Origin: Puccinia triticina | Taxonomy: Eukaryota > Basidiomycota > Pucciniomycetes > Pucciniales > Pucciniaceae | Length of the DNA stretch: 64,000 nt | Assembly: GCF_026914185.1 (NCBI RefSeq) | Contig: NC_070566.1 | Location: 744,001-808,000, forward strand | Direction of reading: 5' to 3' | Part shown: positions 26,563 through 60,514 of the stretch, one piece after another | Layout of the letters: every line of letters starts with the position of its first letter | Numbering within the stretch: the first letter of the stretch is position 1 | The notes under the pieces: model-generated | The model's database searches: none | What the model was told of the DNA's origin: nothing | What the model saw: only the letters and a program-made list of their open reading frames with translations | Made by a program: the position numbers and the translations under genes

Positions 26563-26589
26563 GTGTACTGTGAGAGTCGAACTCACATA

Positions 26590-26631
<42 letters not shown>

Positions 26632-26633: not shown

Positions 26634-26751
26634 ATTGCTATGTTGCAGTTGAATACAGTAGATGTATGCTTATGATGATGTGTGGTGTTGCCCCAAACAT
26701 AAGGATCAAAAACCCCTCTTCGTTACACTCTACGAAACGAACTCGGTCATC

Positions 26752-33943: not shown

Positions 33944-34857
33944 TGAGGGACTCCTGTCCGTACTAGCGGTGGCAGTCGGTTGAGGGGATGTTTGCTGTTT
34001 AGGCTGCCCTCGAGGTGATGGTCCGTGAAGGTGAGCGCGGATGAGATCGGTGATAGCTTTGGGGTTAGGTGGTTTTGAGAGGTTCGCCGGGGTCTGGATC
34101 CTCGGCGGCGGTTGTTTGTTGTTGTTGAAGGGGGGGTAGGAGGTGATCTTAACGAAGAGAAAGAAGGGGGATTGCGAAAACTCTAGATGAAGAAAGATCG
34201 GCGAGCTGAGCTCGAAGGTTTGAACTCTGAAGATATGATCGATATACTCTTGATGGTCCGTATTCTGGGGATCAGAATGCCATGCCTCTCCCATCATCCA
34301 AGTTCGGCGAACTTGGACTCCGGGAGAGCCACATGTCACGTATATTTCATCATCTCCTCCGCGCGCTACGCGCGCACACACACACAACAAGCAACAGAAG
34401 CAGGAAAAGGAAACACAACACAAAGAAATGAGGAAATCACAGTGAGATGAGATAGAAGGAAAAGAGGCATGGAGAAGAAGGAAAAGCAGCAAGAAAGGAA
34501 AAGCCAGAAAACACTCAAACCAGACAAACCAAACAGAAAGAAAAGAAGCCAGAAACAAACAAGGAAATAAACCCACAGCAGGTGCTGTGTTAGGACCAAG
34601 AAAGATGAAGAGGCTGGGAAACTGAGAAAGAAAGGAAATGGGAAAAAAGTGTTGAAAAGGGGGGAGTAGAAAGAGAGAAGGGGGAGGGGAAGATCTTGAA
34701 GATAGAGCCAGTTGAAAGTAAGAAGGTGATGGAGAGGGATCTTGAGGTTTGACGGTGGATTCTTGAGTCTTGAAGCGTGAGAGGGAAGTTGAGTCTTGAT
34801 GATCTTGCTGGCGGCGGAGATGTTCCTGACTAGCTGGCCACGAGAGGGGCCACCACA
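33944..34857 (-). repeat. gypsy-1 3' LTR, 914 bp
   Basis: Plus-strand TGAGGGACTCC to GCCACCACA; in element sense it begins TGTGGTGGCC and ends GTCCCTCA. It contains the CG-rich GCGCGCTACGCGCGC palindrome and the CCAAGTTCGGCGAACTTGGA palindrome at about 34300-34317. Confidence 0.95.
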
Positions 34858-34871
34858 TCCACCCACCACTT

Positions 34872-34891
34872 GGAGTCTGTCCCCAGACTCC
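34872..34891 (-). other. conserved hairpin near the polypurine tract of gypsy-1
   Basis: GGAGTCTG and CAGACTCC form an 8-bp stem around a four-base loop that reads GGGA in element sense (GNRA class). The equivalent place of gypsy-3 has GCAGTCTG/TAGACTGC with the same loop. Confidence 0.6.
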
Positions 34892-35034
34892 TTCGACGTT
34901 CGGTGCGGCCAAAAGTAAGAAGAGGAAACTGGAAAGGAAACCAGAACAAAGGTCCCACGGATGGCTCACGAAGTGGCGACGTAATGCTTACAACGGTGTA
35001 GAGATACCCTAAGGTGCATACTAAGGAGGGGGAC

Positions 35035-38000
35035 TTACTTTTGGTCAGTAATGCCCCCGCGCGGAAAGTACCGCTTGACCTGATCCGCCGCAAACCGGCG
35101 CTTGAGTTCTGTTCCATCGAGCTCAGAGAGAACGTACGAACCCCCTTGAACCTGCTTGACCACGCGGTAAGGGCCGTTCCACTTGTGGGCAAAGAGCTGC
35201 CCCCACTGAACCTCGAGTGATCGATTGTATGCGAGGACGAGGTCGCCAGCCGAAAGCGGGGCACGGAACCGACCAGAATTCTTGTCTTCCCAGTACCGAA
35301 CAGACTCTCCGCGCGCCTTCATCATGCGCTCGTAAGCCAACGCCCGAGTCTCTTCGCTTCTTACCAGCTGCTTGGACCGCGCGACCAACAGATCCTCCGT
35401 GCTGCGAACCTCCTCCCAGTCCACGCCCAAATAAGACTCAATGTCGAGATCAATAGGCAGCGCTGCTCGCTGGCCGAACACTAGCTCATACGGAGAATAT
35501 CCCGTCGTACGCTTAGTTGAGATCCGATCGGCGAAAAGCACCAGAGGCAGAAATTTTCGGCAGTTCTTGCCTGATTCGCCTGCCAACTTGACTAATGCCG
35601 CTTTAAGAGGGCCGTGTCCTCGCTCGACCATGCCCTGACCTTCGGGGTAGTAAGGCGTGGAGACTCGATGCTGACCTGGCAACGAACGCAGCATATCCGC
35701 TAGGGCCCCGCCAAATTCTGAGCCACCGTCTGTCGAATAGGAACGAGCTAGCCCATAGCGCATGATCCAGTGTTCTTGAAGGAATGCCGCCACAGCTTCG
35801 GAAGTGAGATTATTCAGAAACTTTGCCTCAACCCATCCGGAGAAATCGTCCCGAGCAACAATCAAATACTTGGCGCCTCCAGCTTTGATGTGCACGGCAT
35901 CCATTGCCACGCGGCCAAACACCGTCTCTTCGCCCGTCGGGTACCGTGGCTCCAGGGGGCGCTTCAGATCCCTCTTTTGACACGCCTCGCAGCTCTGGCA
36001 CCATCTGGCGACAGCCTGTTTCAATGATGGCCACCAGAAACGATCCGCTACTCGGCGATAAGTCTCGGCGACGCCTCGGTGGCCTAGATCTTCATGGAGC
36101 TTGCCCAAAATCTCGTCCTGCTTGAGGGGTAGAGTGACAACAATTCGTGGAAGAGGGCTTCCGCGCTTCATCAAGCGCCCCGCCTGCACAAAGAATTCTG
36201 CCGACTTGCGCTTTAGTGCTTGATATGTCTTGGGGTCCATGCCTTCAGGGCGAGTCAAAGTCGTCAGGTAATCTTCTAGCTGCCGCCAGAACCCTTCCTG
36301 GTATCCGTTGTATACTGGTTCGGAGCAGGTCGAGTAGGAATGCAGCGGCCTCACGTGTGGTGAATCTTCGTCGAAGTCAAAGCTCGGCGGATCAGAGTCC
36401 TCATCGCCCTGCGGCCGTCGAGAAAGTCCGTCAGGCATAGTAAAAGACTTGCCGGGGCGATGGACGATATCAAACGAAAAGAGTTGAATGAAAGAGACCC
36501 AGCGTGTCATTGGCGCGTTGGGTAGACTGGGGGCGTTAATCATTTGGATGAGCGACTGGGCGTCAACTTGCAGCTCAAAGTGCTGGCCCCATAAGACCGT
36601 CTGAAGTTTCTTGAGAATTCGTGCCACACCGCATAGCTCGAGCTTTGATTGTGAATACCGCGACTCGACATCCGAGAAAAGCAAAGATTCGTAAAGAGCT
36701 GGCCGGTCAAAACCATTCGCGTCCTCTTGCGTAAGAACCGCTCCAGTAGCGTGAAAACTAGAATCAACCGCCAGTTTAATCTTTCCAGCGTCAGGCCCAT
36801 AGTCGATCTTCACTAGGACAATGTCCCTGCCCACGCAGACCTTGAGCGCCTCAAACGCCGCCTCGCAATCCGCCGACCAAACAAAGTCCGCGTCTTTGCG
36901 CGTCAGACGTCGAACAGGAACACAGATTTGGGAGAGGGAGGGGATGAAAATGCGAACATACACCACCACGCCTAAGAAACCCCGAACCTCGGTAGCATTG
37001 ACTGGAGTCGGCCACGAGAGTATTTTATTGACTTTACTCTTTGCCATCCGCCGTCCCTCCTTGCACACAACATGCCCGACGATCTCAAGAGCGGGGACGC
37101 ACGCCGCTAGTTTTGATGCCGATACAGTCAAACCTGACTCCTCAATTCGAAAGAGAATCCGCTCCAGCGTCTCTGCATATTCCCAAATGAAACGCCGAAT
37201 ACCAGAGTGCCAAGGAAGGAGCTTGTTGTTGTAATCCGAAACGGGGCCCTTGATGCCCCCATCGTCGATGAAAATGCCTGCGTGGTCCGGAATCTCCTCC
37301 TGCAGGATCCACATCATCTGCGCTTGGTAGACGGCAACTGAATTAGTAGCACCCTGCGGAAGACGCGTGAGCTGGAACCTGCCCAATGGGGTTTCAAAAG
37401 TGGTCAGAGGTCGAGAGATCGGATCTAGCGCACGCTCGTCGTAGCCACCCATGATGTCGCCAAGCCCGTAGCATGCACGCCCTGAAAATGACTCCACAAA
37501 CTCTTCGGTGGCCGGTGGCACGCCCGCATCCTTGACCGTGACTTTATTTAGAGGCTGAAGATCATGGACAATCCGAAGTTTGCCGTTGCCTTTGAGGACA
37601 CAGAAGACCGGACTTGAGTATGAGGAAGTTGACTGCTCGTATAGGCCGGTACGGACTCGCTCTCTGATCAGCTTGGTATACTCTTCAAGCTTTGCGGCCG
37701 GAATTGGGATTTTGCGCTTCTGCCAGGGTTCGTGTTCAATGACCGGAATGACGTAGGGCAGCCCGTAAGAGTCTTTCAACAGCCCGCGCTCCCCTTCGTT
37801 GAAAGCGATGGCCCCGTTGCGCTCCGCAAGAACATTCTTGATGAGATTAAGCTCGTCCGGATACAACCAGCCCTCGGGCCCAAAATTGACTACCAAGAGA
37901 CGCTCCGCCGTAACTCTTCCTTTGGGAACAAAGGGCCCCGCCAACGAGCGGGACAGTCCCTGATACGGATCACGAGAAAGGGGAGGCCGTTGCAGCGGCG

Positions 38001-39371
38001 GATTGAGTCCCTGCGGCATTGGCACATTGACGGGCTTGATCTTGCGCGCGACCGGCTTGTACTTGGCTGCGAACACCAAGTACTCTCCGCTCCTCCAGGC
38101 ATCTAGAAGTGTGGCCTGGGCACGATAACTGAGACCACACTGGAGCAGGCTCCACGTCCGTAGCTCGGCCGGTTCCTCGAAAGCCGCTTTATCTGCATAA
38201 GACAAACCAGATGGCGGGGCGAGGCTCACGAGTGTGGCACAAGGTATTGCTTTGACAACGTTGTGGGTATCTACCCCCGGAGGTGCACATTGGGAGGAAC
38301 TTACTTTTACCTCTCCCAGCCTCCGCGCCATCCTGAACTCCACCATGCCGCCCTCGCAGTCCACCCAATGAGAATCTAGTTTAGACTCCTTGCGGAGTGA
38401 TGAGTCGCCAGAAGGGATAGAAACACCATTCGCCGGAGACGAGGCCCTCCTGAGTCGGAACGGGGGTAGTGCCTCCTCCCGGAGGTCATCTTGACGCAGA
38501 GTTGTACCATCTACAGTGGTGACAGAAGAAAGGGGTCCTTGGAGGCTCACGACAGTGGCACGCGGTAGAGTTTTTGACATTGACGTGGCATCTAGCCCGG
38601 AGGTGCATGATTGGAGAGAACTTACTTTTACCTCTCCCAGCCTCCGCAAAGTCCCTGGATCCTCCTCAAACGCCCGAGCCTTCGTAGATAGAGAAAGTAG
38701 TTTACCCTCATTGCGGAGGATCCTTAGTTTACCCTCGTCGCGGAGGTAGTGAAGTTTATCCTCATTGCGGAGGGTCTCGATAGACGGAACTAGATTAGCC
38801 TCGTTGCAGAGAGTCTCAATGGACCGGGTTAGTTTATTCTCTTCCCGGAGACGAGAATTGATGCGTAGTTTATTCTCATCGCGGAGACGACGATGATGAA
38901 GCGAAAAGTTGCCTAGACTGGAAGACAAACAAGGATCCGACGAGTCGCTCACATGTGTGGCCAGAGGTAATGTTTTTGACAAGACGGTAGAGTCTACCCG
39001 GGGATGCATACCATGGAGGGGACTTACTTCTACACTTTGTGCCCCCGCGGGAACCCCATGATGCCACCCACCATTTGCGCTCGACGCGAGCGCCCGGCGA
39101 ATCCTTTTTGCCGGATCGAGTGAGAAAGATTCAGGAAGTAGCGGAAACGGAGACCGAAATGGCGGAAGGTTGGTGTTTTTTATTGGTTTTCGATTTTGTG
39201 GATGTTTTTGACTTTTAACGTTTTCGACAGGCGAGATAGAAGAAGCAGACCGAACCGAAGAAAGAAAGCAAACGCTACCGTGGGCCTCTGAGGGGTGAGT
39301 TGGTTTCCCGGACAGCATGCGAGGCCCTAGATTATTGCTGCCGGACAACAAGCCAACTCCACTCATAAAAA
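35035..39371 (-). CDS. gypsy-1 pol: linker, reverse transcriptase, RNase H, integrase
   Basis: Read in the -1 frame after the slippery site; the open frame itself extends upstream to 39465 inside gag. About 450 residues of linker come first, with repeated L-R-(N/D/E)-E-x-KL motifs. Then RT: SSPVFCVLKGNGKLRIVHDL, YGLGDIMGGYDE, and a catalytic box GIFIDDGGIKG near 37265 (Ile in place of the usual Tyr-x, both Asp present). RNase H begins LAVDSSFHATGAV. Integrase: LHEDLGHRGVAETY with CQSCEACQKR (HHCC), MDAVHI, STDGGSEFGG and GQGMVERGHG (D, D, E present). The C-terminus has a GPYRVV-type motif (WNGPYRVVKQVQGGSYVL) but no clear chromodomain. The frame ends at 35035, 180 bp before the 3' LTR. Confidence 0.92.
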
Positions 39372-41534
39372 AGAGAGATGCTCCTCCCCCTCGGGCAACT
39401 CCATGACGCGCCCGCAGTGAGTGAGAACAGCCTTTCGCCCGTGTGCCGGAAATTCCCGCTCCCACCGGCCTTTTTCGATGGGACAGAGCGAGAACTCAAT
39501 GTTCCGTCCTTCAGAATCGGGGAGGATGATCCGCTCTCCTGCCGTGGGAGAGAACAAGAGCGTTGCCTCGAAATCCATAAGGAACGGCCGGCCTAGGATG
39601 AAAGGGCTGTCTTGACGGGTAATCCAGAAGTGGCAGTAGCCCACGATGCTCTTGCCCACTCGAACCGGAACGTCCTCAGCAACCCCAATCAACTCGCAGG
39701 CCTGGTTGTTGATGCCGTAGACCGCAGAGCTGAAGTTGACGCGCGGCGTCAAGTTGAATTGATTCGCCATACTGTCGGATATGATATTCAGCTGCGAACC
39801 CGAGTCGATCAGCGGAGAGCCCGCGCTCTCCCCTGCTCCAATAAGACAAGTGAGATAGCCCAGTGGGCAGGAGTAGAGACAGGGGTTCACCTCCGATTCT
39901 CTAAACTCCCGGCCTTCCGCCAAAGTGCCCGAGTGCACTTTCAGTTCTTCTGGGCCCACCTCCACGCGGCGCCGTGAGACCCATTTCTTAACACCGTCTG
40001 ATACTGCCGGGGAAACTGAGCAAATCTCAGCAACAGTTGTCGAAACTGGGAGGTCAAAAATCTTCTTGACGAAACCCTCGACAGCGTCCGGATGGTCTCG
40101 TGAGACGTCTCGCTCGAAACGGACCTTGGGTTGAGAGCTCGTGACTTTAGGCGGCGTTGCTGGCCTGCTGGGAGTGCCTTTTGGCGTAGAAGACCTGGGA
40201 TCGGGATCGTTCATGATCCGATCGAAAAGCTCCTGCTCTTCCGCTGGTTCCGACTCGCTGGGACCGCTAGGAGCAGTCGCCGGCTTCCGTAGCTGTCGTT
40301 TTACCTGAGAGGGCGGTGCCAAAGGAGCCTTATACGGCCTAGACTCCTCGTGCCGCTTCTTCCCAGCTGCTTCCGACTCGTAACTGCCCGAGAATGATTG
40401 GGATGAAACCGCTGGGGGGTACCACTGCTCTAGAGACCCGCAGCTGGCCTTGAACTCCACAGAGGCGGAGTGAGTCGACGAACGTGGTCCAGGAGACTGG
40501 GGACGAGAGCTCGACGACTGATTCGGTTGAAACGACGCCACTACGTGGCGGATTGGGTGAGTACGATCGAACGGGATGAGCGCCCCGTTGGGCAAAAAGA
40601 AGTTGTTGCCCTTCTTCTCAACTAGCCCTGCGTCCTGATCTTTCTGCAGCTCGGCGCAGCGCAAGGTCCCGTGATTTTCGCGGTGACAGTAGTAGCAAAT
40701 CATTGGCCCACGGTCGGCCGATGTTCCCGATTTTCCGCCCCCCTGCTTCATGTACTGTTCAAAAGCCTTGAACATCCTCGTGAGTTCGTCCACGGAGGCT
40801 TCAGGCTTAGAGTCGGAAGAGGATGCTGTGGGGCGCTTGTCGGACCCCATCTTCTTCATGATTTCGTTCGCCTCCTGAAAGGGCGACGAGACGGGGGCTG
40901 CCGATCGAGTGTCTTCGAATGTGAGTGAAATTTGACCCTTCATGACAGTATCAATTGCGGCGCGAAGTACCGCAAAAGCCGGAAGCCGTGCGCGATTGTC
41001 AGTTGTGACCACCAAAGTATTGTCCTTGATCATTTGATCTCGGATCCGGCCCTGGAAACCCTCAGAGAACGCCTGATAGAACGCCTTCTTGAGCTCCTCA
41101 GCCGAATCGACGTGACCCTTAGATACCAAGTAGGCCTGAATTGGATCCCAGGCCTTGCGGAACCCGTGGTAATCCGATAACGACGACACCCCGCCCTTTT
41201 TCACCCAAGAGTCGACCAGACTAGTGATGTCCCTTTCGGTAAACAACGCTTTGTCGACATCGACCCAGTAACTCAGCATCGCCGCTTTGAGTTTGGTCCA
41301 GTCGGGAGGCTTGTAACCATCGAGAGTTGCGAGGATTGTTCTCGTCTCTCCCGTCTCCACAAAGGCCCCGATCTGGCGGGCCTTGTCATAGTCCGACGCC
41401 CCATCCAGCTCCGCCGCGAGCTCGTAGTCGTCCAGGAATTGCTCCACGTCGGAGCCCGCAAACTTCAAGCTCTTGTCTTGCGGCTTGATCTTGATCATCC
41501 TCCCGCGAGGGGGATCGGGGTTGAGGTCGGCCAT
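39363..41534 (-). CDS. gypsy-1 gag-protease
   Basis: 723 residues, start MADLNPDPPRGRM. The capsid-like region (about 30-230) has VEQFLDDYELAAELDGASD and FRKAWDPIQAYL. A zinc knuckle CYYCHRENHGTLRC is near residue 278. A long Ser/Pro-rich basic segment follows. The aspartic protease SPLIDSGSQLNIISD is near residue 576 (catalytic DSG), with FILGRPFL as the later flap/ILG motif. The stop TGA at 39363-39365 directly follows the slippery heptamer, so protease is made with Gag and pol by frameshift. Gypsy-3 encodes a close relative of the N-terminal part. Confidence 0.93.
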   Translation of the reverse strand: MADLNPDPPRGRMIKIKPQDKSLKFAGSDVEQFLDDYELAAELDGASDYDKARQIGAFVETGETRTILATLDGYKPPDWTKLKAAMLSYWVDVDKALFTERDITSLVDSWVKKGGVSSLSDYHGFRKAWDPIQAYLVSKGHVDSAEELKKAFYQAFSEGFQGRIRDQMIKDNTLVVTTDNRARLPAFAVLRAAIDTVMKGQISLTFEDTRSAAPVSSPFQEANEIMKKMGSDKRPTASSSDSKPEASVDELTRMFKAFEQYMKQGGGKSGTSADRGPMICYYCHRENHGTLRCAELQKDQDAGLVEKKGNNFFLPNGALIPFDRTHPIRHVVASFQPNQSSSSRPQSPGPRSSTHSASVEFKASCGSLEQWYPPAVSSQSFSGSYESEAAGKKRHEESRPYKAPLAPPSQVKRQLRKPATAPSGPSESEPAEEQELFDRIMNDPDPRSSTPKGTPSRPATPPKVTSSQPKVRFERDVSRDHPDAVEGFVKKIFDLPVSTTVAEICSVSPAVSDGVKKWVSRRRVEVGPEELKVHSGTLAEGREFRESEVNPCLYSCPLGYLTCLIGAGESAGSPLIDSGSQLNIISDSMANQFNLTPRVNFSSAVYGINNQACELIGVAEDVPVRVGKSIVGYCHFWITRQDSPFILGRPFLMDFEATLLFSPTAGERIILPDSEGRNIEFSLCPIEKGRWEREFPAHGRKAVLTHCGRVMELPEGEEHLSFL
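39366..39372 (-). promoter_or_regulatory. -1 programmed frameshift site U UUU UUA
   Basis: In the gag frame the codons are TCT TTT TTA TGA. The heptamer T TTT TTA is in the exact X XXY YYZ phase, the stop follows at once, and the pol frame (-1) is open from 39465 across this point, continuing FFMSGVGLLSG. This is the same heptamer class used by lentiviral gag-pol. No obvious strong pseudoknot was checked downstream. Confidence 0.88.
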
Positions 41535-41773
41535 CGTAAACAGAGCCTATGGGAAAAAAAGATTGGATATCGAGGATGGCTCACGGAGTGGCTAGGTTGT
41601 TTTGACAATGTAGAAACCTCTGAGGTGCAACTGAGTTGGAGGGGACTTACTTCTACCTCTCCTATGCCCCGCTGCTGAACACCAAAAAAAAAAAAAAAGA
41701 AAAAAAAAAAGAAAAAGGGATCCGAAAGAAAATATGGCAAATTATAACCGCCAAACGGCCTCAAAACCACAGT

Positions 41774-41823
41774 CGAGACTGTAAATCTTGAGGTCGCTGG
41801 TTCGATCCCGGCTCGGGGGACCA
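41774..41823 (-). other. gypsy-1 primer-binding site: 50-nt match to mature tRNA-Tyr 3' part
   Basis: The plus strand reads as tRNA positions 27-76: anticodon stem CGAGA, loop CTGTAAA (GTA anticodon), TCTTG, AGGTC, T-arm GCTGG-TTCGATC-CCGGC, acceptor TCGGGGG and ACCA. The element RNA is the complement. It begins two bases inside the 5' LTR. A usual primer site is about 18 nt. CCA is not gene-encoded in eukaryotes and no tRNA intron is present, so the sequence came from mature tRNA. Confidence 0.9.
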
Positions 41824-41825
41824 AA

Positions 41826-42739
41826 TGAGGGACTCCTGTCCGTACTAGCGGTGGCAGTCGGTTGAGGGGATGTTTGCTGTTTAGGCTGCCCTCGAGGTGA
41901 TGGTCCGTGAAGGTGAGCGCGGATGAGATCGGTGATAGCTTTGGGGTTAGGTGGTTTTGAGAGGTTCGCCGGGGTCTGGATCCTCGGCGGCGGTTGTTTG
42001 TTGTTGTTGAAGGGGGGGTAGGAGGTGATCTTAACGAAGAGAAAGAAGGGGGATTGCGAAAACTCTAGATGAAGAAAGATCGGCGAGCTGAGCTCGAAGG
42101 TTTGAACTCTGAAGATATGATCGATATACTCTTGATGGTCCGTATTCTGGGGATCAGAATGCCATGCCTCTCCCATCATCCAAGTTCGGCGAACTTGGAC
42201 TCCGGGAGAGCCACATGTCACGTATATTTCATCATCTCCTCCGCGCGCTACGCGCGCACACACACACAACAAGCAACAGAAGCAGGAAAAGGAAACACAA
42301 CACAAAGAAATGAGGAAATCACAGTGAGATGAGATAGAAGGAAAAGAGGCATGGAGAAGAAGGAAAAGCAGCAAGAAAGGAAAAGCCAGAAAACACTCAA
42401 ACCAGACAAACCAAACAGAAAGAAAAGAAGCCAGAAACAAACAAGGAAATAAACCCACAGCAGGTGCTGTGTTAGGACCAAGAAAGATGAAGAGGCTGGG
42501 AAACTGAGAAAGAAAGGAAATGGGAAAAAAGTGTTGAAAAGGGGGGAGTAGAAAGAGAGAAGGGGGAGGGGAAGATCTTGAAGATAGAGCCAGTTGAAAG
42601 TAAGAAGGTGATGGAGAGGGATCTTGAGGTTTGACGGTGGATTCTTGAGTCTTGAAGCGTGAGAGGGAAGTTGAGTCTTGATGATCTTGCTGGCGGCGGA
42701 GATGTTCCTGACTAGCTGGCCACGAGAGGGGCCACCACA
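41826..42739 (-). repeat. gypsy-1 5' LTR, 914 bp
   Basis: Partner of 33944-34857, same length and sequence where compared; in minus-strand sense it is the 5' LTR, with the primer site at its 3' border. Confidence 0.95.
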
Positions 42740-43916
42740 GCGGCTAGATCAAACCAGAACATCCCTCTCAATGGCTGGTACAGACCGGTCATTGAGAGTA
42801 CACAACCCTCCCGATAGCTGGTCTGTACCGGCCATCCAGAGTACACAACCCTCTTGATGCCCGGTACAGACCAATTGTTGAGGGGACTCAACCCTCTTGA
42901 TGCCCGGTACAGACCGGCCATCAAGAGTACGCAACCTTGATGCCCGGTCTGTACTGGTCATTGAGAGGATTCAACCCTCTTGATACCCGGTCTATACCGG
43001 CCATTGAGAGTACGCAACCTTGATGCCTGGTATAGACCGGCCATTGAGATAACGCAACCCCCTAGATTCCCGGTCAAGACCGGCCATCAAGAGTACACAA
43101 CCCTCTTGATGGCCGGTATAGACCGGTCATCGCAAGGACATAGCCCACTCAATGACCGGCCTGTACCTTGAGAGGACACATCCCTCTTGATGGCCGGTAA
43201 AGACCGGCCATCGAGAGAGAGGGCACCACCCTCTGGTAGATCTGTGCCGTTCATTGAGAGGACACAACCTTCTCAATGGCCAGTACAGACCGGTCATTGA
43301 GGGGGTACATCTGTACCGGCCATTGAGAGGCTTGAGTCCTCTTGATGAGCGGCGGTGTGTCCTCTTGATGTCCTACCCACCGGTCATTGAGAGGCATGTG
43401 TCCTCTCAATGACTGGTAGAGGGGACACATCTGTACCGGGCATTGAGAGGACACTGTACCCTCTCAATGACTGGTCCGTACCGGGCATTGAGAGGGGTCT
43501 GTACTCTCGATGACCGGTCTGTACCGGCCATCAAGAGGGATGTGTCCTCTCAAGGGACAGGCCGGTCATTGAGTGATTGATGACCGGTCTATACCGGCCA
43601 TTGAGAGGGTTGTGTACTCTCGATGACAGGTCTCAACCGGGCATCTAGAGGGTTGCGTACTCTTGATGGCCGGTCTATACCGGGCATCAAGAGGGTTGTG
43701 TACTCTTGATGACCGGTCTCAACCGGGCATCTAGAGGGTTGCGTACTCTCAATGGCCGGTCTATACCGTCCATTGAGAGGGTTGTGTACTCTTGATGACC
43801 GGTCTTGACCGGCCATCTAGAGGGTTGCGTACTCTTGATGGCCGGTCTATACTGGGCATCGAGAGGGTTGAATCCTCTTGATGGCCGGTCTATACCGGGT
43901 ATCTAGAGGGTTGTAA
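42740..43916. repeat. 43-bp palindromic satellite array of element A
   Basis: Repeated units of the form GATGCCCGGTATAGACCGG followed by (C/T)CATCGAGAGTACACAACCCTCTT. Every unit has two inverted pairs: CCGGTxxxxACCGG and CTCTTGATG/CATCAAGAG. It is read from element end to centre, and the same order occurs reversed in element B. Confidence 0.88.
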
Positions 43917-44157
43917 ATCTGGCAGGTATTCTGGCATCTCAAGCCTGCGGGAAAACTTCTAAAGCTAAAAATTACAAGGTGGGTCAGATCTGGCTTTACA
44001 AGTGCCAGATCTGACTTTACACGGCCGTGTAAATCGAAGGGAAGTCCTCCACTGGCCACATCTGGCCAGTATAGTGTTGAGATTTTCTTTATTTCTTCCT
44101 TCATTTGGATACTGGAGGACTTCCCTTCGATTTACACGGCTGTGTAAAGTCAGATCT

Positions 44158-44630
44158 GTTGATGCCCGGTATAGACCGGCCATCGAGAGTATGCAACCCT
44201 CTAGATGCCCGGTCGAGACCGGTCATCGAGAGTACACAACCCTCTTGATGCCCGGTATAGACCGGCCATCAAGAGTACGCAACCCTCTAGATGCCCGGTC
44301 GAGACCGGTCATCAAGAGTACACAACCCTCTCGATGGCCGGTATAGACCGGTCATTGATCACTTGATGACCGGCCTGTCCCTCGAGAGGACACATCCCTC
44401 TTGATGGCCGGTACAGACCGGTCATCGAGAGTACAGACCCCTCTCAATGCCCGGTACAGACCGGTCATTGAGAGGGTACAGTGTCCTCTCGATGCCCGCC
44501 ACAGATGTGTCCCCTCTACCAGTCATCGAGAGGACACATGCCTCTTGATGACCGGTGGGTAGGACATCAAGAGGACACACCGCCGCTCATCGAGAGGACT
44601 CAAGCCTCTTGATGGCCGGTACAGATGTAC
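44158..44630. repeat. 43-bp satellite array, left part of element B
   Basis: GATGCCCGGT recurs at 44161, 44204, 44247 and 44290, an exact 43-bp period; variants continue to 44630. The array resumes at 56451 after gypsy-4. Confidence 0.88.
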
Positions 44631-48109: not shown

Positions 48110-48329
48110 AATTATACCTGAATTGTTCCATGTGGAATTTTACTTGGTGTTTTTTTACAAATTGCCACCTTGTAAAAAAAGTACCTTGCAAAATTGCATA
48201 TTTGCAGCAAAAACCTGAATTTTACAAAGCAAATGTCGAGGAAGCAGTACACCATGCCAAATATACCTTGTAAAAATCAATAACAATGCCAACCAGGTTT
48301 GAAATTACAAGGTGTTGTGCAAATATCAC

Positions 48330-48675
48330 TGTAAGAGCCCGGTAGGCTCTTCACTGATCCGTTGGAGAGACTTGTACAACAAGGTTGATGAACAACCTTG
48401 AGGGAGAATTCTAGAACCTTGGTTGGTATTGCTAGCACGGTAGAATAAGATGAAGGGCAGTCCGGGAATTCTCCCCATCAGTATGTACAAGCAGGAACAG
48501 AGTTGAAGAGGAAGAGAACAATCATAGAGAGGGGACTTACCTAGCACGGTAGAATAAGATGAAGGGCAGTCCGGGAATTCTACCGAGCTAGGAAGGCTGA
48601 GGAGGAGCAGAGACTATGTAGGCTGGCTTATGTAATCTTTTCTTGTGAAAGCCCAAGGTGGGCAGGGGTTTCACA
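48330..48675 (-). repeat. gypsy-2 3' LTR
   Basis: TGTAAGAGCCCGGTAGGCTC to GGTTTCACA, 346 bp. Contains a duplicated CTAGCACGGTAGAATAAGAT block, the same architecture as the gypsy-4 LTR. The polypurine tract GGGGGGGAGAC borders it. Confidence 0.95.
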
Positions 48676-51600
48676 GTCTCCCCCCCTATAAAAAGAAGAA
48701 AAAAAGGAAAAGAAAGCAATAAGAAAAGCAAGAGGATGAAAGGGGGTGGATTGGGATGAGGGACCAGAAGTGTGAGGGAGGGGGACGGGAGTCGAGGGCG
48801 GGGATGCTGGTCGAGAATGTGGGGGTGTAGGCGTCAAAGGTGGAATGGGTGGGTCAGGGAAAGGAAGAGTCGTTGGTGACGGTTGGCCGGCTACTGGTTG
48901 GGCTGATCGTAGTGGAGTAATTGTCTCCCCTGAGCCTAAGGGAGGAATGCGGCCGGTGGAATGCTCACAGAGTGGCCAAGGAGTTGTTTTCTTCACGGAG
49001 GATGGGGGTAGAGAGAGCCCGGAGGTGCACAACTGGGTGGAACTTACTTCTACTGGTTTGTCCTCCATCACGCCTCCATCCTCCCGTAGTCTTTTGAGCT
49101 TCGACACATGCATGACCGGGTGGCGTCGGTCGCCCTCCGGCAAAGCCAGACGGACGCTTTGGCCATGGTTGAAAACCTCTAACACTTGGTAGGGACCCTC
49201 GAATCGTTCCTTCAACTTGTCTGTCCCGCCTGAGTGTCGGCCACGCCAGTCCGCCAAATCTAGGAAGACCCAATTCCTGCTGACCAGAGCGGGCAGATTT
49301 CTGCAGTGCTTGTTATGGTGCAACGCCTGCTTCACCCTTGCCGTCCATAAGGCGTCCCTGGCTTCGGCCCATGCGGATTTGCGCAACTGGATCCATTTCC
49401 TCAGAGTTGGAGGATCATCGTCTTTTGCCGGATTTGTGGGGAAAAGTTGGGGATTCCGGCCAAGTATCAGGTTAAAGGGAGTGAAACCCGTCGAGACATT
49501 GATGGCCGAATTGATGGCAAACTCGACCGACGGCAGTGCCTCTAACCACTTCCCCTGCTTCTTTGCCGTGAAGGTGCGGAGGATTTGGACCACCGTCTTA
49601 TTTGTACGCTCACTACGGCCATCGGCCTGTGGGTGGAAAGACGAAGACATGTGGAATCGTGTGTTGATCCTGCTCATGAGAGCCTGCCAGAACCGAGATG
49701 TCCAGGCCTTGTCCCTGTCGCTGATAATGCTTCGGGGCGCCCCAAACACGGCCACCCAACCCGCGAAGAACCGGGAGGCTGTTTTCTCTGCTGTGTCCGT
49801 CTGTAGAACCGGGATGACTCTGGTGAACCCCGATAGTCGACAGGTACAGGTCAGCATCATATCATAATGTCCCGATGCTCGGAGGGGGCCCACAAAATTG
49901 ATTCCAATATCTGACAGGGGTTTAGAAGGGAATTCCGGGGTGAGCATCTTACCCGGCGGTGCCGTCGTTGGGGCCTTGGTCAACTGGCAGGTTACACAGG
50001 CTTGAGTGATCTCCCTAACCTCTTTCGACATCTGCGGCCAGAAAAAATCTCGCCGCAACTCGTGGATGGTCTTTAGGTAGCCGAGGTGACCCAGTCGCAC
50101 GTGAGCCTTGTCCACCAACTTCCGCCTCAGATCACCCCCTGCGGGGATGACCAGGCGGTTGTCCACCCAGAGAAGTCCATCCCGCTTGGCGTAGTTGTCA
50201 TGGAGCGGTAGAACCTTTTGTAACGAGAGACAGAAGGGATCCTCCTTGTATCCGCCAACGATCCGCTCCTTGAGGCTGTCCGACAGTACTCCCCGCATTT
50301 CTGTCAGAGCTGCGACACACGCGACGTCCTTGGGCAAGATTTCTGGGTCTTCACAGTCGGAGTCCTTCCGGGACAAGGCATCCGCAACCGTGTTGTCCTC
50401 CCCGCAAATGTAGTTGAAGTTCAGGTCGAAATCTGCCATGAGCTCGGACCATCGGGCTTGTCGACGACTAAGGTTCCGCTGATTGAGGATGTAAGTGAGG
50501 GAGTGATGATCACTCATTACATTCACTTTCATGCCTAAGAGTAGCATTTTCCATTTTTGCAAGGCATGGATGACTGCCAGCAGTTCCTGTTCATGCACAG
50601 GGTAATTGCGCTCAGCTGCACTCATCTGTTGAGACTCGTAGGCAATAGGGGAAGCCAATTTCCACTCCTTACCCTGGAAAAGCGCGGCGCCCAGACCGGT
50701 TCCGCTGGCGTCTGTGAACAGCCAGAGTGGGTCGAGCGAGTCAAAGTCAATGTTTTTCAGGCAAGGTAAAGAGGTCATTATTCTCTTGATGTTCGCAAAC
50801 GCTGTCTCTTCCGCCTCTCCCCACTTGAAGTCCTTGGCCGCAAGCTTTGAGCTGGTGAGGGGTGTCAAGGTGCCGACGTACTTCTCGAGACCCCAGATGA
50901 ATTTCTTCATCCATTGTACGGTCCCCAAGAACTTCTTCACTCCCCTTGATGACAATGGCGACGCCCAGTTCAGGACTGCTTCCACCTTCTTGTTGTCCGG
51001 TCGGATGCCCTCTGCTGAAATCCAGTGACCGAGGAACTTGACCGAATGCTGAAAGAGCTTGGTTTTCTTGGGGCTACAGTACAAGTTGGCGGCGCGTAAT
51101 TGTCGGAGAACAGCCCGTACATGTAATTCATGCTCTTGGAATGAATCTGAAAAAACCACGATATCGTCTAAATAGACAACACAGAACTTGTTGATCAGAT
51201 TTCCAAGAGCTTCTTCCAGTCTCGCCTGATGGGTCGCAGGCGCATTAGATAGTCCCATAGGCATAACTACCCACTCCATTAAGCCCCAGGGGGTCTTGAC
51301 TGCCGTCAGAGGAATGTCTGCATCCCTCATGCGAGTTTGGAAAAATGCATTCGTCTGGTCCAGGATCGAAAAGCACTTCCCTGAAGCTACGAGACGGACA
51401 AGTTCGTCGACGTTGGGTAAGGGGGAGCGGTCGCGGACGGTCACGGCGTTTAATTTGCGGTAGTCGCAAACCCAGCGTGGAAGGGCCTGAGGGTCTTTCT
51501 TGGGAATGATCATACTGGGAGAAGCGTATTGACTGGTTGATCGGCGAATGCGTCCCGCCGTGAGATGTTGTTCAACCAGCAGTCTCCAGGCGTCCAGGTA

Positions 51601-52314
51601 TTTCCGGGGATAAGCGTACTGACGCTCATTGATAACCGCGTCGGGGTTCGTCAGAATTATTTTATGGCGGACCCTTGATGCTTCATTTTGTAACTTTGAG
51701 GGGAAAAAGTCGTCGTCGTCCTCCCCCGCTTCTTCTGAATCCTCGGTGACCGCCGGAATGTCAGCTGGGAAGAGATCACTGAACTCGAGGAGAATCTTCT
51801 TCTCGGCGGACTCGCAGGGATAGTGCAGCGGTTGTGGGTCGGCTGTGGTGGCCGCGATACACTCAGTGGCGGAGTCCACACGGTAGTCGAGCACAGATCT
51901 CGCTGAATTTTTGCACACCAGTCTGCGCCTAGGGATTGAGACTGTCAAGTCGAACTGTGTGAGGAATGGTGTCCCGAGGATCATGTCGTGGTCCCCCGTG
52001 ACGCGGCCGATTTTGAGAGAGACCCCGTGAAACGTCAGAGAGGTGGCTGGATCGCGCAAGTTCAGTGTGGTGAACTGGCGTAGGATGATTGGACTAGTAG
52101 ATGGTTCGTCCAGAGCCAGTCGCACAATTGTGGGTCTGTCCAACGCACGCCGCGGAAGATTCCCTGCAGAGACGGTGCGATCCGAGATGAGGTTCAGTTC
52201 CAAGCCTGTATCTACCAGTCCCCGCAGGGCCACATTGCCGTGGAATAGTACCACCACCAGCCTAGGTTGCGCGGGTCGCGTTGGGGGTGTTTGTTGGACC
52301 ATGAGAGCACTCAA
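48628..52314 (-). CDS. gypsy-2 pol: protease, reverse transcriptase, RNase H, integrase
   Basis: 1,228 residues, uninterrupted. Protease-like start RGLVDTGLELNLISD (residues ~32-46) and MILGTPFL. RT: SPSMIIPKKD, CDYRKLNAVTVRDRSPLPNV, FSILDQTNAFFQ and FCVVYLDDIVVFSD (YLDD near 381). RNase H: LWLFTDASGTGLGAALFQ near 533 and DNTVADALSR. Integrase: HVRLGHLGYLKTIHEL with CVTCQLTKA, INFVGPL, SIISDRDKAWTS and ADGRSERTNK (D, D, E present). C-terminal GPYQVLEV and HPVMHVSKLKRL. The last ~130 residues are Pro/Ser-rich and run into the 3' LTR. The Gln/Asp wording in RT (LDQTNAF) is slightly divergent from LDLRSGY-type motifs. Confidence 0.93.
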   Translation of the reverse strand: MSALMVQQTPPTRPAQPRLVVVLFHGNVALRGLVDTGLELNLISDRTVSAGNLPRRALDRPTIVRLALDEPSTSPIILRQFTTLNLRDPATSLTFHGVSLKIGRVTGDHDMILGTPFLTQFDLTVSIPRRRLVCKNSARSVLDYRVDSATECIAATTADPQPLHYPCESAEKKILLEFSDLFPADIPAVTEDSEEAGEDDDDFFPSKLQNEASRVRHKIILTNPDAVINERQYAYPRKYLDAWRLLVEQHLTAGRIRRSTSQYASPSMIIPKKDPQALPRWVCDYRKLNAVTVRDRSPLPNVDELVRLVASGKCFSILDQTNAFFQTRMRDADIPLTAVKTPWGLMEWVVMPMGLSNAPATHQARLEEALGNLINKFCVVYLDDIVVFSDSFQEHELHVRAVLRQLRAANLYCSPKKTKLFQHSVKFLGHWISAEGIRPDNKKVEAVLNWASPLSSRGVKKFLGTVQWMKKFIWGLEKYVGTLTPLTSSKLAAKDFKWGEAEETAFANIKRIMTSLPCLKNIDFDSLDPLWLFTDASGTGLGAALFQGKEWKLASPIAYESQQMSAAERNYPVHEQELLAVIHALQKWKMLLLGMKVNVMSDHHSLTYILNQRNLSRRQARWSELMADFDLNFNYICGEDNTVADALSRKDSDCEDPEILPKDVACVAALTEMRGVLSDSLKERIVGGYKEDPFCLSLQKVLPLHDNYAKRDGLLWVDNRLVIPAGGDLRRKLVDKAHVRLGHLGYLKTIHELRRDFFWPQMSKEVREITQACVTCQLTKAPTTAPPGKMLTPEFPSKPLSDIGINFVGPLRASGHYDMMLTCTCRLSGFTRVIPVLQTDTAEKTASRFFAGWVAVFGAPRSIISDRDKAWTSRFWQALMSRINTRFHMSSSFHPQADGRSERTNKTVVQILRTFTAKKQGKWLEALPSVEFAINSAINVSTGFTPFNLILGRNPQLFPTNPAKDDDPPTLRKWIQLRKSAWAEARDALWTARVKQALHHNKHCRNLPALVSRNWVFLDLADWRGRHSGGTDKLKERFEGPYQVLEVFNHGQSVRLALPEGDRRHPVMHVSKLKRLREDGGVMEDKPVEVSSTQLCTSGLSLPPSSVKKTTPWPLCEHSTGRIPPLGSGETITPLRSAQPVAGQPSPTTLPFPDPPIPPLTPTPPHSRPASPPSTPVPLPHTSGPSSQSTPFHPLAFLIAFFSFFSSFYRGGDCETPAHLGLSQEKIT

Positions 52315-52693
52315 GGACCGGTTGACGGTGATTTCGGGGAAAAAATGAAAAGGAAATCAAAAGGTAGGTCGTGAGCGTTAATGCAGTGGGAGAATCAAAG
52401 CTAGTAAGCTCGTTGGACCGGATTCTGGCAGTAGAAATGAGACTAAGAAGCCTCTCGGAACAGATTCGGACGGATGATTTAAGGCTAAGAAGCCTACGGA
52501 CTGGACTCGGACGGATTTGGACGGATAATTAAGGCTAAGAAGCCTACGGACTGGATTCGGAAAGAGGTTGATGGACAGAGCCTCGCGGAGAGGAATTTTG
52601 TTTGAAAAAAAAATTGGCTGAGAAGTCTCTTCTTTTTTGTTTGAGTGTGTTTGGAAGGATCCGGGTTTGTTTGTTGGATCTAGAAAAAAAAAG
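52315..52693 (-). other. short leader of gypsy-2 in place of gag
   Basis: Contains three copies of a short repeat (GGCTAAGAAGCCTACGGACT and variants at about 52440-52560) and ends with CTAGA10G at the LTR. No zinc knuckle or capsid-like frame. Either gag was deleted or the family never carries it. Confidence 0.7.
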
Positions 52694-53039
52694 TGTAAGA
52701 GCCCGGTAGGCTCTTCACTGATCCGTTGGAGAGACTTGTACAACAAGGTTGATGAACAACCTTGAGGGAGAATTCTAGAACCTTGGTTGGTATTGCTAGC
52801 ACGGTAGAATAAGATGAAGGGCAGTCCGGGAATTCTCCCCATCAGTATGTACAAGCAGGAACAGAGTTGAAGAGGAAGAGAACAATCATAGAGAGGGGAC
52901 TTACCTAGCACGGTAGAATAAGATGAAGGGCAGTCCGGGAATTCTACCGAGCTAGGAAGGCTGAGGAGGAGCAGAGACTATGTAGGCTGGCTTATGTAAT
53001 CTTTTCTTGTGAAAGCCCAAGGTGGGCAGGGGTTTCACA
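52694..53039 (-). repeat. gypsy-2 5' LTR
   Basis: Same 346-bp sequence as 48330-48675; followed by ATCAC. Confidence 0.95.
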
Positions 53040-53044
53040 ATCAC

Positions 53045-54189: not shown

Positions 54190-55110
54190 ATCGGTGACCA
54201 GTAACATCTCCCCTTGATGACCGGTCTGTGCCGGTCATCGAGGGAGTAGCACCTCCCCTCGATGTCAGGTACACACCGGTCATCGAGAGGAGTAGCACCT
54301 CCCCTCGATGACTGGTACACACCGGTCATCGAGGGGAATAACACCTCCTCTGGATGACCGGTGTATACCGGTCAACGCGAGGAGGTGTGAGTCCCCTCGA
54401 TGGCCGGTAAAGACAGGTCATCGAGAGGAGTAGCACTTCCCCTCGATGACTGGTACACACCGGTCATCGAGAGGAGTAGCACCTCCCCTCGATGTCCGGG
54501 ACACACCGGTCATCGAGAGGAGTAGCACCTCCCCTCGATGACTGGTACACACCGGTCATCGAGGGGAATAACACCTCCTCTGGATGACCGGTGTATACCG
54601 GTCAACGCGAGGAGGTGTGAGTCCCCTCGATGGCCGGTAAAGACAGGTCATCGAGAGGAGTAGCACCTCCCCTCGATGACCGGGACACACCAGTCATCCA
54701 GAGAAGTTGTTATTCCCCTTGATGACCGGTCTGGCCGGTCATTGAGAGGAGGTGCTACTCCCCTGGGTGACCGGCACAGACCGGTCATCGAGAGGAGATG
54801 TTACTCCCCTCGATGACCGGTGATGACCGGTCATCGAGAGGGGGTCTTATTACCCTCGATGACCGGTCTGTGCCGGTCATCGGGAGGTGTGACTGATGAC
54901 CGGTCCGCGCCGGTCATCGAGAGGTGTGATTGATGACCGGTCTGTGAGTCCCCTCGATGACCGGTACAGACCGGTCATCAAGAGGTGTGATTCCCCTCAA
55001 TGACCGGTGTGTACCAGTCATCGAGGGGAGGTGCTACTCCTCTCGATGACCGGTGATGGCCGGTCATCGAGAGGAGGTGTTATTACCCTCGATGACCAGT
55101 CTGTCTTGAC
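54190..55110. repeat. 46-bp palindromic satellite array with 230-bp higher-order unit
   Basis: Units of about 46 bp: CGGTCATCGAGAGGAGTAGC, then ACCTCCCCTCGATGACTGGT and ACACAC. Inverted pairs CCTCTCGATGACCGGT and ACCGGTCATCGAGAGG recur. A block at about 54306-54435 returns at 54536-54665 (ACTGGTACAC at 54311 and 54541), a 230-bp higher-order period equal to five units. It is related to, but distinct from, the 43-bp arrays of A and B. Confidence 0.85.
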
Positions 55111-56513: not shown

Positions 56514-57168
56514 TGTGGAGCTTCGTCCGGTGCTAGGCCGGCGACAGCGCTGGGAAGGGAAAGTGGTGATGAGCCTGCCTTCCTGTGAGGTCCTAGGATG
56601 AATGAGATCTGAGAAAACCAGAGAAAGGGGGTTGAACAACACTGTCAGTGAGACTTGTTGGCGGGTTTGGGGGTTGAGGATCTGGAAAGGGATGCTGATG
56701 AGGATCTTGAAGGTTGATAAGGATCTAATGAGGTGATAAGGATAAGGATCTGTGAATCTTGATGGTGTATTTCGTGGATCAGAAGACTGCCATGCCCCCC
56801 CCTCATCTGAGTCCGAACTTCAAACTCAGACTCCAGGAAGTGAACATGTCACAGACATGTTCATCACATCCCTAACTACAAACAAGCTCTGCACAACACA
56901 AACAAAACAAAACACACACAAAGAAAAGATCAACCACATACATAGAAAAATGAGGAGAGTAACATAAGAGGATGGGTGCAATGGATCAAAAAGAACAGAG
57001 AGAAAAATCAACAATAATCATCAATATCAATCATAATATCTTGAATCTTGAGCTTGAAATTTGAGATGGATAATCTTGAGGGCTTGATCTTGATAACTGG
57101 TCACTTGAATCTTGAGTCTTCATCTGGATCTTGAACCATGGACCGTCTGTACCATTTTGCTCACCACA
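56514..57168 (-). repeat. gypsy-3 3' LTR, 655 bp
   Basis: TGTGGAGCTTCGTCCGGTGC to TTGCTCACCACA; in element sense it begins TGTGGTGAGC, the same terminal TGTGGT as gypsy-1. Confidence 0.95.
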
Positions 57169-57259: not shown

Positions 57260-59233
57260 CTAAAAGAATGGGAACCAGAAGGGAGTCCGGGGCTCTTGGA
57301 GATGATCTTGAAACTGAAGGAGCTGGCCTAAACGAGCGGAAGAACCAAGGGATCGAGAATTGCTCACAAATGTGGCACAGGGTAGAGTTTTGACAACTAA
57401 AGAGGCATCAAGCCCCGGAGGTGCACAATTGGGAGGACTTACTTGCACTCCATTTTGCCTCCGCAGAAAACCAAAACCCAACACATCCAAACCATGTGGA
57501 ACTAGTTTACCCTCATTGCGGAGGCGGGATTGAGGAAGGCGGCAACGTTTTGTTGAATAAGAATCAGGGAAAGGGCTGAGAAAGGAACCAGATAACGGAT
57601 CAGGATCGGATAATTTCTTCTCATTGCGGAGAATGGCTGTAGAAGAGCGGAGACGATCGGCAGAGATTGGCGGGTAAGGAGCGGGAATTGGATCAGGATC
57701 AGATAGTTTAACCTCTTTGCGGAGGGGGTCGCAAGCACGGATTGGAAAAGATAGTTTAACCTCATCTTGGAGGCGGAATGGCGGAATCGGAATCTCTGCA
57801 GGCTGGCAGAGCTGGTGGCTAGGAACAAACTCAGAACTGGAACTAGAAAGGGTCGCGGGAAAATCTTGATCTTGCTTCACTTTGATTTGACGGGAATCCA
57901 AACAGGGGCACGGAATCTTCTTCCTTCTATCCTTTGCAACAGGCGGAGCGGTAGCGGCGAGATTGGGAACAAGGAGAGCGGATATTTTCTCAAGAACGGC
58001 ATCTACTGCTTGCGGAGACGGAGAACTAGGGGTGGATGAATCTTGCGTTGCTTGCCTGCGGATCGGGTGACAAGGCGGCGGCGGAGTCGGAGAAGCTGGC
58101 GGATACCACGGGTGAAGAGCTCCGCAACCAGTCCTGAATGGCGCGGAAACAAAGCTGCTAGACGGGTGTGATGCCTTAAAGGAGGACACCACGCGGCGGA
58201 TCGGTCGACTAGGATCAAAGGGGATCAGGGCACCACTTGGGAGGAAGTAGTTGTTGCCCTTCTGCTCAACAAGCTTATCTTCCTTGTCCTTCTGGAGCTC
58301 GAAGCATCAGCCAGTCCCGTGGCCTTCGAAATGGCAGTAGTAACAGATCAATGGTCGCCGCACTGCGGAGGGCGGAGTGGTGTGCGGAGCGGAGGACTGA
58401 GGCGGAGAGCGGAGAGCAAACTTCTCCATCAGGCGCTGCTCAAAGGACTGGAGCATCCTGGTGATCTCATCAATGGTCGCCGGGGCCTGCGGAGCGGTAG
58501 TGACGTCGTTTGTTGGGCGCCGCTCCGCTTCCATTTTCCGCATGACTTCATTCGCATCCTTGAATGGCGGCGAAGGGACAGGATTAGTTGATCTAGAAGG
58601 CTCAAAAGTCAAGGCAATCTGGCCTTTCATAACTTCGTCGATGGCGGAGCGGAGATCGTGGAGAGGAGGAAGCTTGAAGCGATGATCCAGTGTAGTGATC
58701 ATCTTATCACTCTTGATGAGAGCTGTGCGGATCTGATCTTGAAAACTAGAAGAAAAGGATCGATAGAAGCGAGTGCGGAGCTCTTCAGCGGAGTCGACAT
58801 GCTCGTTCCGCACCAGATAAGCCTGGATTGGGTCCCAGGATCGCCGGAACCAATGATAATCACCCGAGGACGAGACTCCGCCCTTTGACGACCAGGAATC
58901 AACCAGAGAGTCGAGATCTTGTAGCGTAAAGCGAGCCTCATCGACCCGACCCCAATGAGAGAGCATTGCCGCCTTCAATTTCGACCAGTCGGGCGGGCTA
59001 AAACCATCCAGTGTCTCCAGAATATCTAGCAGTTCTCCATCCGGGACGAAGAGACGAATCTGCCGAGCCATATCCTGCTCAGAAGCTCTGTCCACCTCCG
59101 CCGTCAACTCGTACATATCCAGGAAGCGTTTGACGTTGGATCCGTCGAAACCAAACTGCTTGTCCCGCGGCTTAATCTTAACCGTTGGGACCCTTGGCCT
59201 TGCTGTGCCGCCGAGTAGATTTGCGGGATCCAT
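57260..59233 (-). pseudogene. gypsy-3 gag plus linker, one in-frame stop
   Basis: Starts MDPANLLGGTARPRV; residues 20-230 align with gypsy-1 Gag (FLDMYELTAEVDRASEQD, FRRSWDPIQAYL, DEVMKGQIALTF). The zinc knuckle CYYCHFEGHGTG-stop-C is cut by TGA at 58307-58309 where gypsy-1 has Arg, a likely CGA to TGA change. The same frame then continues to 57260 with the post-knuckle block (VVSSFKASH) and four LQDEVKL/LRKEVKL/LRNEKKL/LRNEGKL repeats, ending before any protease or RT. With the stop, only capsid and half a knuckle would be made. Confidence 0.88.
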
Positions 59234-59807: not shown

Positions 59808-59857
59808 CGAGACTGTAAATCTTGAGGTCGCTGGTTCGATCCCGGCTCGGGGGACCA
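59808..59857 (-). other. gypsy-3 primer-binding site: the same 50-nt tRNA-Tyr match
   Basis: Identical to 41774-41823, starting at tRNA position 27 (CGAGACTGTAAATCTTG...) and ending in ACCA two bases from the LTR. Upstream of position 27 the two elements differ (GAGA- versus CAGT-), so the shared segment ends exactly at the anticodon stem. Confidence 0.9.
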
Positions 59858-59859
59858 AA

Positions 59860-60514
59860 TGTGGAGCTTCGTCCGGTGCTAGGCCGGCGACAGCGCTGGG
59901 AAGGGAAAGTGGTGATGAGCCTGCCTTCCTGTGAGGTCCTAGGATGAATGAGATCTGAGAAAACCAGAGAAAGGGGGTTGAACAACACTGTCAGTGAGAC
60001 TTGTTGGCGGGTTTGGGGGTTGAGGATCTGGAAAGGGATGCTGATGAGGATCTTGAAGGTTGATAAGGATCTAATGAGGTGATAAGGATAAGGATCTGTG
60101 AATCTTGATGGTGTATTTCGTGGATCAGAAGACTGCCATGCCCCCCCCTCATCTGAGTCCGAACTTCAAACTCAGACTCCAGGAAGTGAACATGTCACAG
60201 ACATGTTCATCACATCCCTAACTACAAACAAGCTCTGCACAACACAAACAAAACAAAACACACACAAAGAAAAGATCAACCACATACATAGAAAAATGAG
60301 GAGAGTAACATAAGAGGATGGGTGCAATGGATCAAAAAGAACAGAGAGAAAAATCAACAATAATCATCAATATCAATCATAATATCTTGAATCTTGAGCT
60401 TGAAATTTGAGATGGATAATCTTGAGGGCTTGATCTTGATAACTGGTCACTTGAATCTTGAGTCTTCATCTGGATCTTGAACCATGGACCGTCTGTACCA
60501 TTTTGCTCACCACA
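59860..60514 (-). repeat. gypsy-3 5' LTR, 655 bp
   Basis: Partner of 56514-57168; followed by CCGG. Confidence 0.95.

What the first reader, a model, noticed from the sequence alone, without database searches (positions are those of the whole stretch)
41774..41823. Primer-binding site equal to 50 nt of mature, spliced tRNA-Tyr
The match covers tRNA positions 27-76 exactly (anticodon stem to CCA), with the GTA anticodon, no intron and the untemplated CCA. Usual primer sites end near 18 nt because reverse transcription stops at modified A58. Here the template was copied past position 58 and up to the 5' edge of the anticodon stem, suggesting that the primer is a cleaved 3' tRNA part or that copying stops at a modification near position 26.
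Basis: partly seen in the sequence, partly recalled or inferred. Interest (0 to 1): 0.85.

Follow-up and report, generated by a model that had tools for sequence, protein, structure and literature searches.

The report
Retrotransposon carrying most of a tRNA
A group of rust-fungus jumping genes carries an exact 50-letter copy of a host transfer RNA instead of the usual 18 letters, suggesting that they copy much further into their primer RNA before a different chemical mark stops them.

Summary
Window 41774-41823 equals positions 27-76 of the spliced, CCA-tailed host tRNA-Tyr(GUA). It lies 2 nt inside the 5' LTR of a young Ty3/gypsy element on the minus strand (LTRs 914/914 identical). A second, gag-only element carries the same 50 nt at 59808-59857. 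The window's own genome holds 196 exact copies of the 50-mer. Five intron-containing tRNA-Tyr genes were found, and no exact spliced copy reaches position 25.

Of 95 distinct 18-mer contexts examined, 92 carry the long form. At 44 gag matches (51-85% identical), 43 have it upstream. Inside 27-58, non-CpG divergence is 4 of 2880 cells, against 316 of 3459 in the adjacent DNA. Position 58 is A in every copy read. Position 26 is a variable junction base in two of six flank families.

Best reading: plus-strand strong-stop DNA is copied from tRNA-Tyr past A58 to position 27 and ends at G26, the usual m2,2G site. The 32 extra nucleotides act as a giant primer over-extension sequence. Copying is inferred, not shown. 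Selection for long annealing, and a cleaved 3' tRNA primer, remain possible. This is a new variant of a known kind.

The parts
41774..41823 (-). Extended primer-binding site: complement of mature tRNA-Tyr(GUA) 76-27 on the element's sense (minus) strand; core 59-76 = 41806-41823, extension 27-58 = 41774-41805
   Evidence: Exact match to five host tRNA-Tyr genes after intron removal plus CCA
41824..41825 (-). 2-nt spacer between LTR end and PBS
   Evidence: Sequence and LTR alignment
41826..42739 (-). 5' LTR of element 1
   Evidence: 914/914 identical to 33944-34857
39363..41534 (-). gag-protease open frame, 723 aa
   Evidence: ORF; weak aspartyl protease match at 575-652, below Pfam's cut-off
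35035..39465 (-). pol open frame, 1476 aa: RT, RNase H, integrase in Ty3/gypsy order
   Evidence: Pfam RVT_1, RT_RNaseH, Integrase_H2C2, rve; Ty3 RT 4ol8 E=2e-28
33944..34857 (-). 3' LTR of element 1
   Evidence: Identical to 5' LTR; candidate 4-bp TSD GCGG
41740..41773 (-). Leader just downstream of the PBS on the sense strand, predicted to pair with the distal PBS
   Evidence: RNA fold z=-2.42, 4 of 200 shuffles as good; mean distal PBS-flank pairing above shuffled flanks in each family
59808..59857 (-). Second exact 50-nt tRNA-Tyr PBS, element 2
59860..60514 (-). 5' LTR of element 2
   Evidence: 655/655 identical to 56514-57168
56514..57168 (-). 3' LTR of element 2
   Evidence: candidate 4-bp TSD CCGG
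58307..59233 (-). gag-like open frame of element 2 (308 aa); no pol frame recognised in the ORF list, so probably non-autonomous
   Evidence: ORF list; about 62% DNA identity to gag of element 1; no Pfam match

Best explanation
This is the primer-binding site of a Ty3/gypsy group that starts minus-strand DNA at the CCA end of mature host tRNA-Tyr. Inferred: plus-strand strong-stop DNA is then copied from the still attached tRNA not 18 nt, to m1A58, but 50 nt, through A58, the T arm and the anticodon arm, and stops at G26, probably because it is m2,2G. The 50-nt end anneals to the same 50 nt at the end of the minus strand for the second strand transfer, so the tRNA segment is rewritten in each cycle. 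The 32 nt beyond the classical PBS work as a very long primer over-extension sequence. Shown: identity with the spliced tRNA, the sharp 26/27 edge, near-zero divergence inside against high divergence outside, and junction variability in two families. Inferred: copying in each cycle, the modification states and the block.
For: Exact 27-76 match to spliced tRNA plus CCA. No exact genomic copy of spliced 25-59, so no intronless gene was seen as a DNA source. 92 of 95 distinct 18-mer contexts keep 27-58 with at most 4 mismatches. 43 of 44 gag-anchored loci have the long form: 35 read with 0-3 mismatches in 27-58, 5 listed as exact 50-mers, 3 with 2-3 changes in the 51 nt; 1 has none. Non-CpG divergence in 27-58 is 4 of 2880 cells, against 316 of 3459 upstream and 1727 of 10147 in the first 120 nt of LTR (my sums). 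35 of 40 changes in 27-58 are TpCpG transitions, as expected of decay after insertion. In none of the six families does the majority base differ from the tRNA at any of the 32 sites, although 19 are G or T, where a change leaving a G.U pair would be tolerated. Junction base 26 in family A varies in 8 of 25 equal-length tails, against 0 of 125 cells in the five free columns before it; 99.1% identical copies L001 and L005 differ there. TRM1 and GCD14 families present. m2,2G is reported to block and mis-template RTs at 26 (PMC12140624, passages).
Against: No copy has a non-A at position 58 (0 genome-wide in an exact 34-nt context; 92 of 92 A), although m1A58 is usually misread; so the primer would have to lack m1A58 or be read faithfully, or the segment is not copied from tRNA. 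Position 26 is constant in families C, D and F and nearly so in B, so a new error at 26 in each cycle is not general; C and F are constant for A, not G. In HIV-1, products reaching position 37 were minor and not active in transfer (PMC13191261, passages). In Ty1 and Ty3, tRNA sequence is not inherited (PMC5371799, section 2.2). The tRNA modifications of this fungus were not measured. Families are related, so counts are not independent.
Confidence: 0.6

Rival explanations
1. Selection for long annealing without copying: the 50 nt are kept because the genomic RNA must pair with acceptor, T and anticodon arms of tRNA-Tyr, and the PBS is copied from the element's RNA, as in Ty1/Ty3.
For: Ty1/Ty3 do not inherit tRNA sequence. 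No m1A58 scar. Families C and F have a constant A at 26. The edge at 26/27 is also the edge of the anticodon arm.
Against: No family-majority change in 27-58, G.U-tolerated ones included, although gag has diverged to 51% identity; variable base and short indels exactly at the junction in family A.
Confidence: 0.22
2. The primer is a cleaved 3' tRNA-Tyr piece starting at 27 (or 26); plus-strand copying simply runs off its 5' end.
For: Gives the same edge and explains extra or variable end bases. A tRNA cut in the anticodon loop serves as primer in Ty5 and a half-tRNA in copia (passages).
Against: No small-RNA data; I know of no common cleavage between 26 and 27 (recalled: cuts are usually in the anticodon loop). 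G at 26 in 65 of 92 copies suggests that base 26 was often present in the template.
Confidence: 0.12
3. A one-off capture of tRNA cDNA in an ancestor, carried along passively.
For: The flank families look related to each other, so shared ancestry is likely.
Against: Adjacent DNA and LTRs diverged strongly while 27-58 did not.
Confidence: 0.02

Closest known systems
Retroviral PBS plus primer over-extension sequence (lentiviruses, spumaviruses)
   Same: Sequence next to the PBS is complementary to the tRNA beyond A58, so that over-extended plus-strand strong-stop DNA can still transfer (PMC13191261, passages)
   Different: There the active over-extended products end at Psi55 or m5U54, a few nt; here the match is 32 nt beyond the core, to position 27
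Ty3 and Ty1 of yeast
   Same: Ty3/gypsy RT-RNaseH (Ty3 RT is the best solved match); priming from the tRNA CCA end
   Different: Bipartite PBS, tRNA sequence not inherited (PMC5371799, passages and section 2.2)
Helenus TRIMs and Copia elements of rust fungi (Kojima 2024, PMC10886601)
   Same: Rust fungi; PBS implies mature spliced tRNA, including tRNA-Tyr
   Different: Most have a PBS complementary to the anticodon loop, with Copia as the inferred driver (abstract and passages); here the full CCA end in gypsy elements

Membership tests
Ty3/gypsy LTR retrotransposon | RT, RNase H, integrase in this order | tested here: met
   Pfam order 625-798, 863-995, 1116-1274 in pol; Ty3 RT 4ol8 E=2e-28
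Ty3/gypsy LTR retrotransposon | LTRs, target-site duplication | tested here: met
   Identical LTRs; candidate 4-bp repeats GCGG and CCGG
Ty3/gypsy LTR retrotransposon | Polypurine tract before the 3' LTR | tested here: inconclusive
   Purine-rich but interrupted by T in both elements
Retroviral-type PBS (tRNA 3' end, about 18 nt) | Begins with TGG next to the LTR and matches the tRNA 3' end | tested here: met
   2-nt spacer, 59-76 exact
Retroviral-type PBS (tRNA 3' end, about 18 nt) | Match ends near A58 | tested here: not met
   Match runs to 27 or 26 in 92 of 95 contexts with at most 4 mismatches in 27-58
Primer over-extension sequence | tRNA-complementary sequence directly beyond the PBS | tested here: met
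   32 nt, 27-58
Primer over-extension sequence | Rescues transfer of over-extended strong-stop DNA | not testable with these tools
   Needs replication intermediates
Half-tRNA (copia/Ty5/Helenus) priming | PBS next to the LTR matches the anticodon region, not the CCA end | tested here: not met
   PBS starts at CCA

The most novel reading that the evidence does not exclude
A whole gypsy group has reset the stop that defines its PBS from m1A58 to m2,2G26 of tRNA-Tyr: it copies and inherits two thirds of a tRNA per cycle, using a primer pool lacking m1A58 (no error scar at 58), so hundreds of genomic PBS copies act as a fossil record of the modification state of one tRNA.
Probability: 0.45. Interest if true: 0.8.

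Novelty: new variant of a known kind. Interest (0 to 1): 0.64.

Why it matters
The length of a PBS is normally explained by one tRNA mark, m1A58. A natural, high-copy case with the edge at position 26 would test whether tRNA modifications set strand-transfer boundaries in LTR elements, whether Ty3/gypsy elements can inherit tRNA sequence, and whether PBS copies record tRNA modification in organisms that are hard to study.

Tried and rejected
Relatives outside this genome: no exact match of a 31-nt segment in viral contigs; pol relatives in viral contigs and genome contigs gave no confirmed locus. Protein relatives exist in Puccinia coronata, P. striiformis and Phenoliferia, but their DNA could not be read, so whether they share the 50-nt PBS is unknown. 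Another exact match of 12 nt or more to tRNA-Tyr in the window, on either strand: none but the two PBSs; so no bipartite site of that length, and no tRNA-Tyr match in the window's other gypsy element (48321-53042) or at the LTR pair 19185-19498/25724-26037. An intronless tRNA-Tyr gene as DNA source: no exact contiguous 25-59. Position-59 control: 0 exact, so the zero at 58 is not unusual by itself.

Rows dropped and limits. Three of 95 contexts (L047, L059, L079) match only to about 43, 55 and 41 (read by eye); the filter of at most 4 mismatches dropped them before the divergence counts, and 2 further copies fitted no flank family and were left out. All 95 were chosen by an exact 18-mer, so 59-76 could not be compared. 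90 of the first 100 listed 18-mer places were fetched, out of 323; 10 on C4 were not. Identical contexts were counted once. In one search, 44 gag hits were used: those's 150 that lie on C1-C3 and on C4 below 4.635 Mb; one (L106) has no PBS in the 1.2 kb read. One search's 25 tails exclude family-A copies with a base more or fewer, and two of its seven columns were fixed by my selection, so I cite the other five. In family E, position 15, a CpG-type site, varies more than 26.

Not in print, as far as searched: the listings show no paper on a PBS of about 50 nt for tRNA-Tyr in gypsy elements; most subscription journals and Repbase are not covered.

Full report
What is there. The + strand at 41774-41823 reads as tRNA sense, and the element runs on the minus strand. 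Element 1 has LTRs at 41826-42739 and 33944-34857, 914 of 914 identical, a gag-protease frame and a pol frame with RT, RNase H and integrase in Ty3/gypsy order; the nearest solved RT is that of Ty3. Two bases separate the LTR from the CCA complement. A second element, with 655-bp identical LTRs, a gag-like frame and no pol frame recognised, carries the same exact 50 nt at 59808-59857. The two gag regions are only about 62% identical in DNA, so an exact 50-nt match between them is striking.

The host tRNA. A gapped pattern found five tRNA-Tyr genes in the window's own genome (122.8 Mb, 18 contigs). Each has an intron after position 37 and no encoded CCA.

How common. Exact counts in the genome: 18-mer 59-76, 323; 32-mer 27-58, 218; 50-mer, 196; 26-60 with a base other than G at 26, 65 (C 30, A 24, T 11 by my reading of its list, counted); spliced 25-59, 0. 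Reversed-pattern controls were 0. I read 95 distinct contexts of the 18-mer: 92 keep 27-58 with at most 4 mismatches, 3 are shorter. Starting instead from gag, 40 of 44 loci (51-85% identical to element 1's gag N-terminus) have the exact 18-mer 197-767 nt away; of these 40, 35 were read and have 0-3 mismatches in 27-58, and the other 5 are's list of exact 50-mers. Of the remaining 4, 3 carry the match with 2-3 changes and 1 has none. One search scored 150 of 1086 candidates, so more distant gag relatives were not sampled.

Constant inside, variable outside. Within six flank families (90 copies), bases off the family majority, CpG-type transitions left out, are 4 of 2880 in 27-58, 316 of 3459 in the 40 nt upstream and 1727 of 10147 in the first 120 nt of LTR (my sums). 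No family majority differs from the tRNA at any of the 32 sites. Of 40 changes in 27-58 in the 92 copies, 35 are C to T in TpCpG on one or other strand. This context is the one reported for RIP-like mutation in Pucciniomycotina (PMC5381629, passages); a later survey found few RIP-like signatures in rusts by another index (PMC12210899, passages). L021 and L095 are 99.7% identical over 368 bases and their one difference is such a change, at position 28, so at least some arose after insertion.

The edge. Base 26 is G in 65 of 92, A in 12, C in 9, T in 6. Further family-A copies have one base more or fewer. Off-majority at 26: A 13 of 31, E 4 of 14, B 1 of 28, C 0 of 5, D 0 of 9, F 0 of 3. So the junction is a hot spot in two families, as expected where a reverse transcript ends, but not in all.

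Position 58. It is A in 92 of 92, and no copy in the genome has another base there in an exact 34-nt context; position 59 likewise. GCD14/Trm61-family and TRM1-family matches are present, so m1A58 and m2,2G26 are both possible, but neither was measured. If the segment is copied from tRNA, A58 must be read without error or be unmethylated in the primer.

Mechanism. In HIV-1 the plus-strand stop at m1A58 sets the 18-nt PBS; when the m1A58 enzyme is mutated synthesis goes further, and a primer over-extension sequence in lentiviruses and spumaviruses accepts slightly longer products, while products reaching position 37 were minor and not active (PMC13191261, passages). In Ty1 and Ty3 the tRNA sequence is not inherited (PMC5371799, section 2.2). 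m2,2G26 hinders and mis-templates RTs (PMC12140624; PMC4697793; passages). The rust elements fit an over-extension to the next strong block, G26. The absence of G.U-tolerated family changes favours copying over selection for pairing, but only moderately, because pairing through the anticodon arm has the same natural edge.

Also seen. The leader next to the PBS is predicted to pair with its distal 20 nt (family means of 12-17 positions paired, against 4-7 for flanks shuffled base by base; in family B about 5 of 20 shuffles did as well; z=-2.42 for element 1). Families look related and the PBS side does not vary, so this is a lead, not proof.

Noticed in passing
41740-41805: Predicted stem-loop between the distal PBS (tRNA 27-46 complement) and the leader just downstream; mean pairing above shuffled flanks in each flank family, by eye through GTCTCG or CCTCAA motifs in most.
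   Followed up: partly
34857-34900 and 57168-57210: Short inverted repeat (AGTCT..AGACT) just before the 3' LTR in both elements.
   Followed up: no
L047, L059, L079: Three genomic copies in which the tRNA-Tyr match ends early, at about 43, 55 and 41: possible shorter strong-stop products or rearrangements.
   Followed up: partly
48321-53042: Another gypsy element with a Tf2-1-like SH3 domain and no evident tRNA PBS; may be self-primed like Tf1 (recalled).
   Followed up: partly
42738-44630, 54200-55104, 60515-61027: Related repeat arrays, with inverted matches among them, next to the LTR elements.
   Followed up: no
26561-26634: Predicted tRNA-Ser(TGA), a type that Kojima 2024 reports as inflated by Helenus elements in Puccinia.
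   Followed up: no
39363-39465: gag and pol frames overlap by about 100 nt in different frames, suggesting frameshifting.
   Followed up: no
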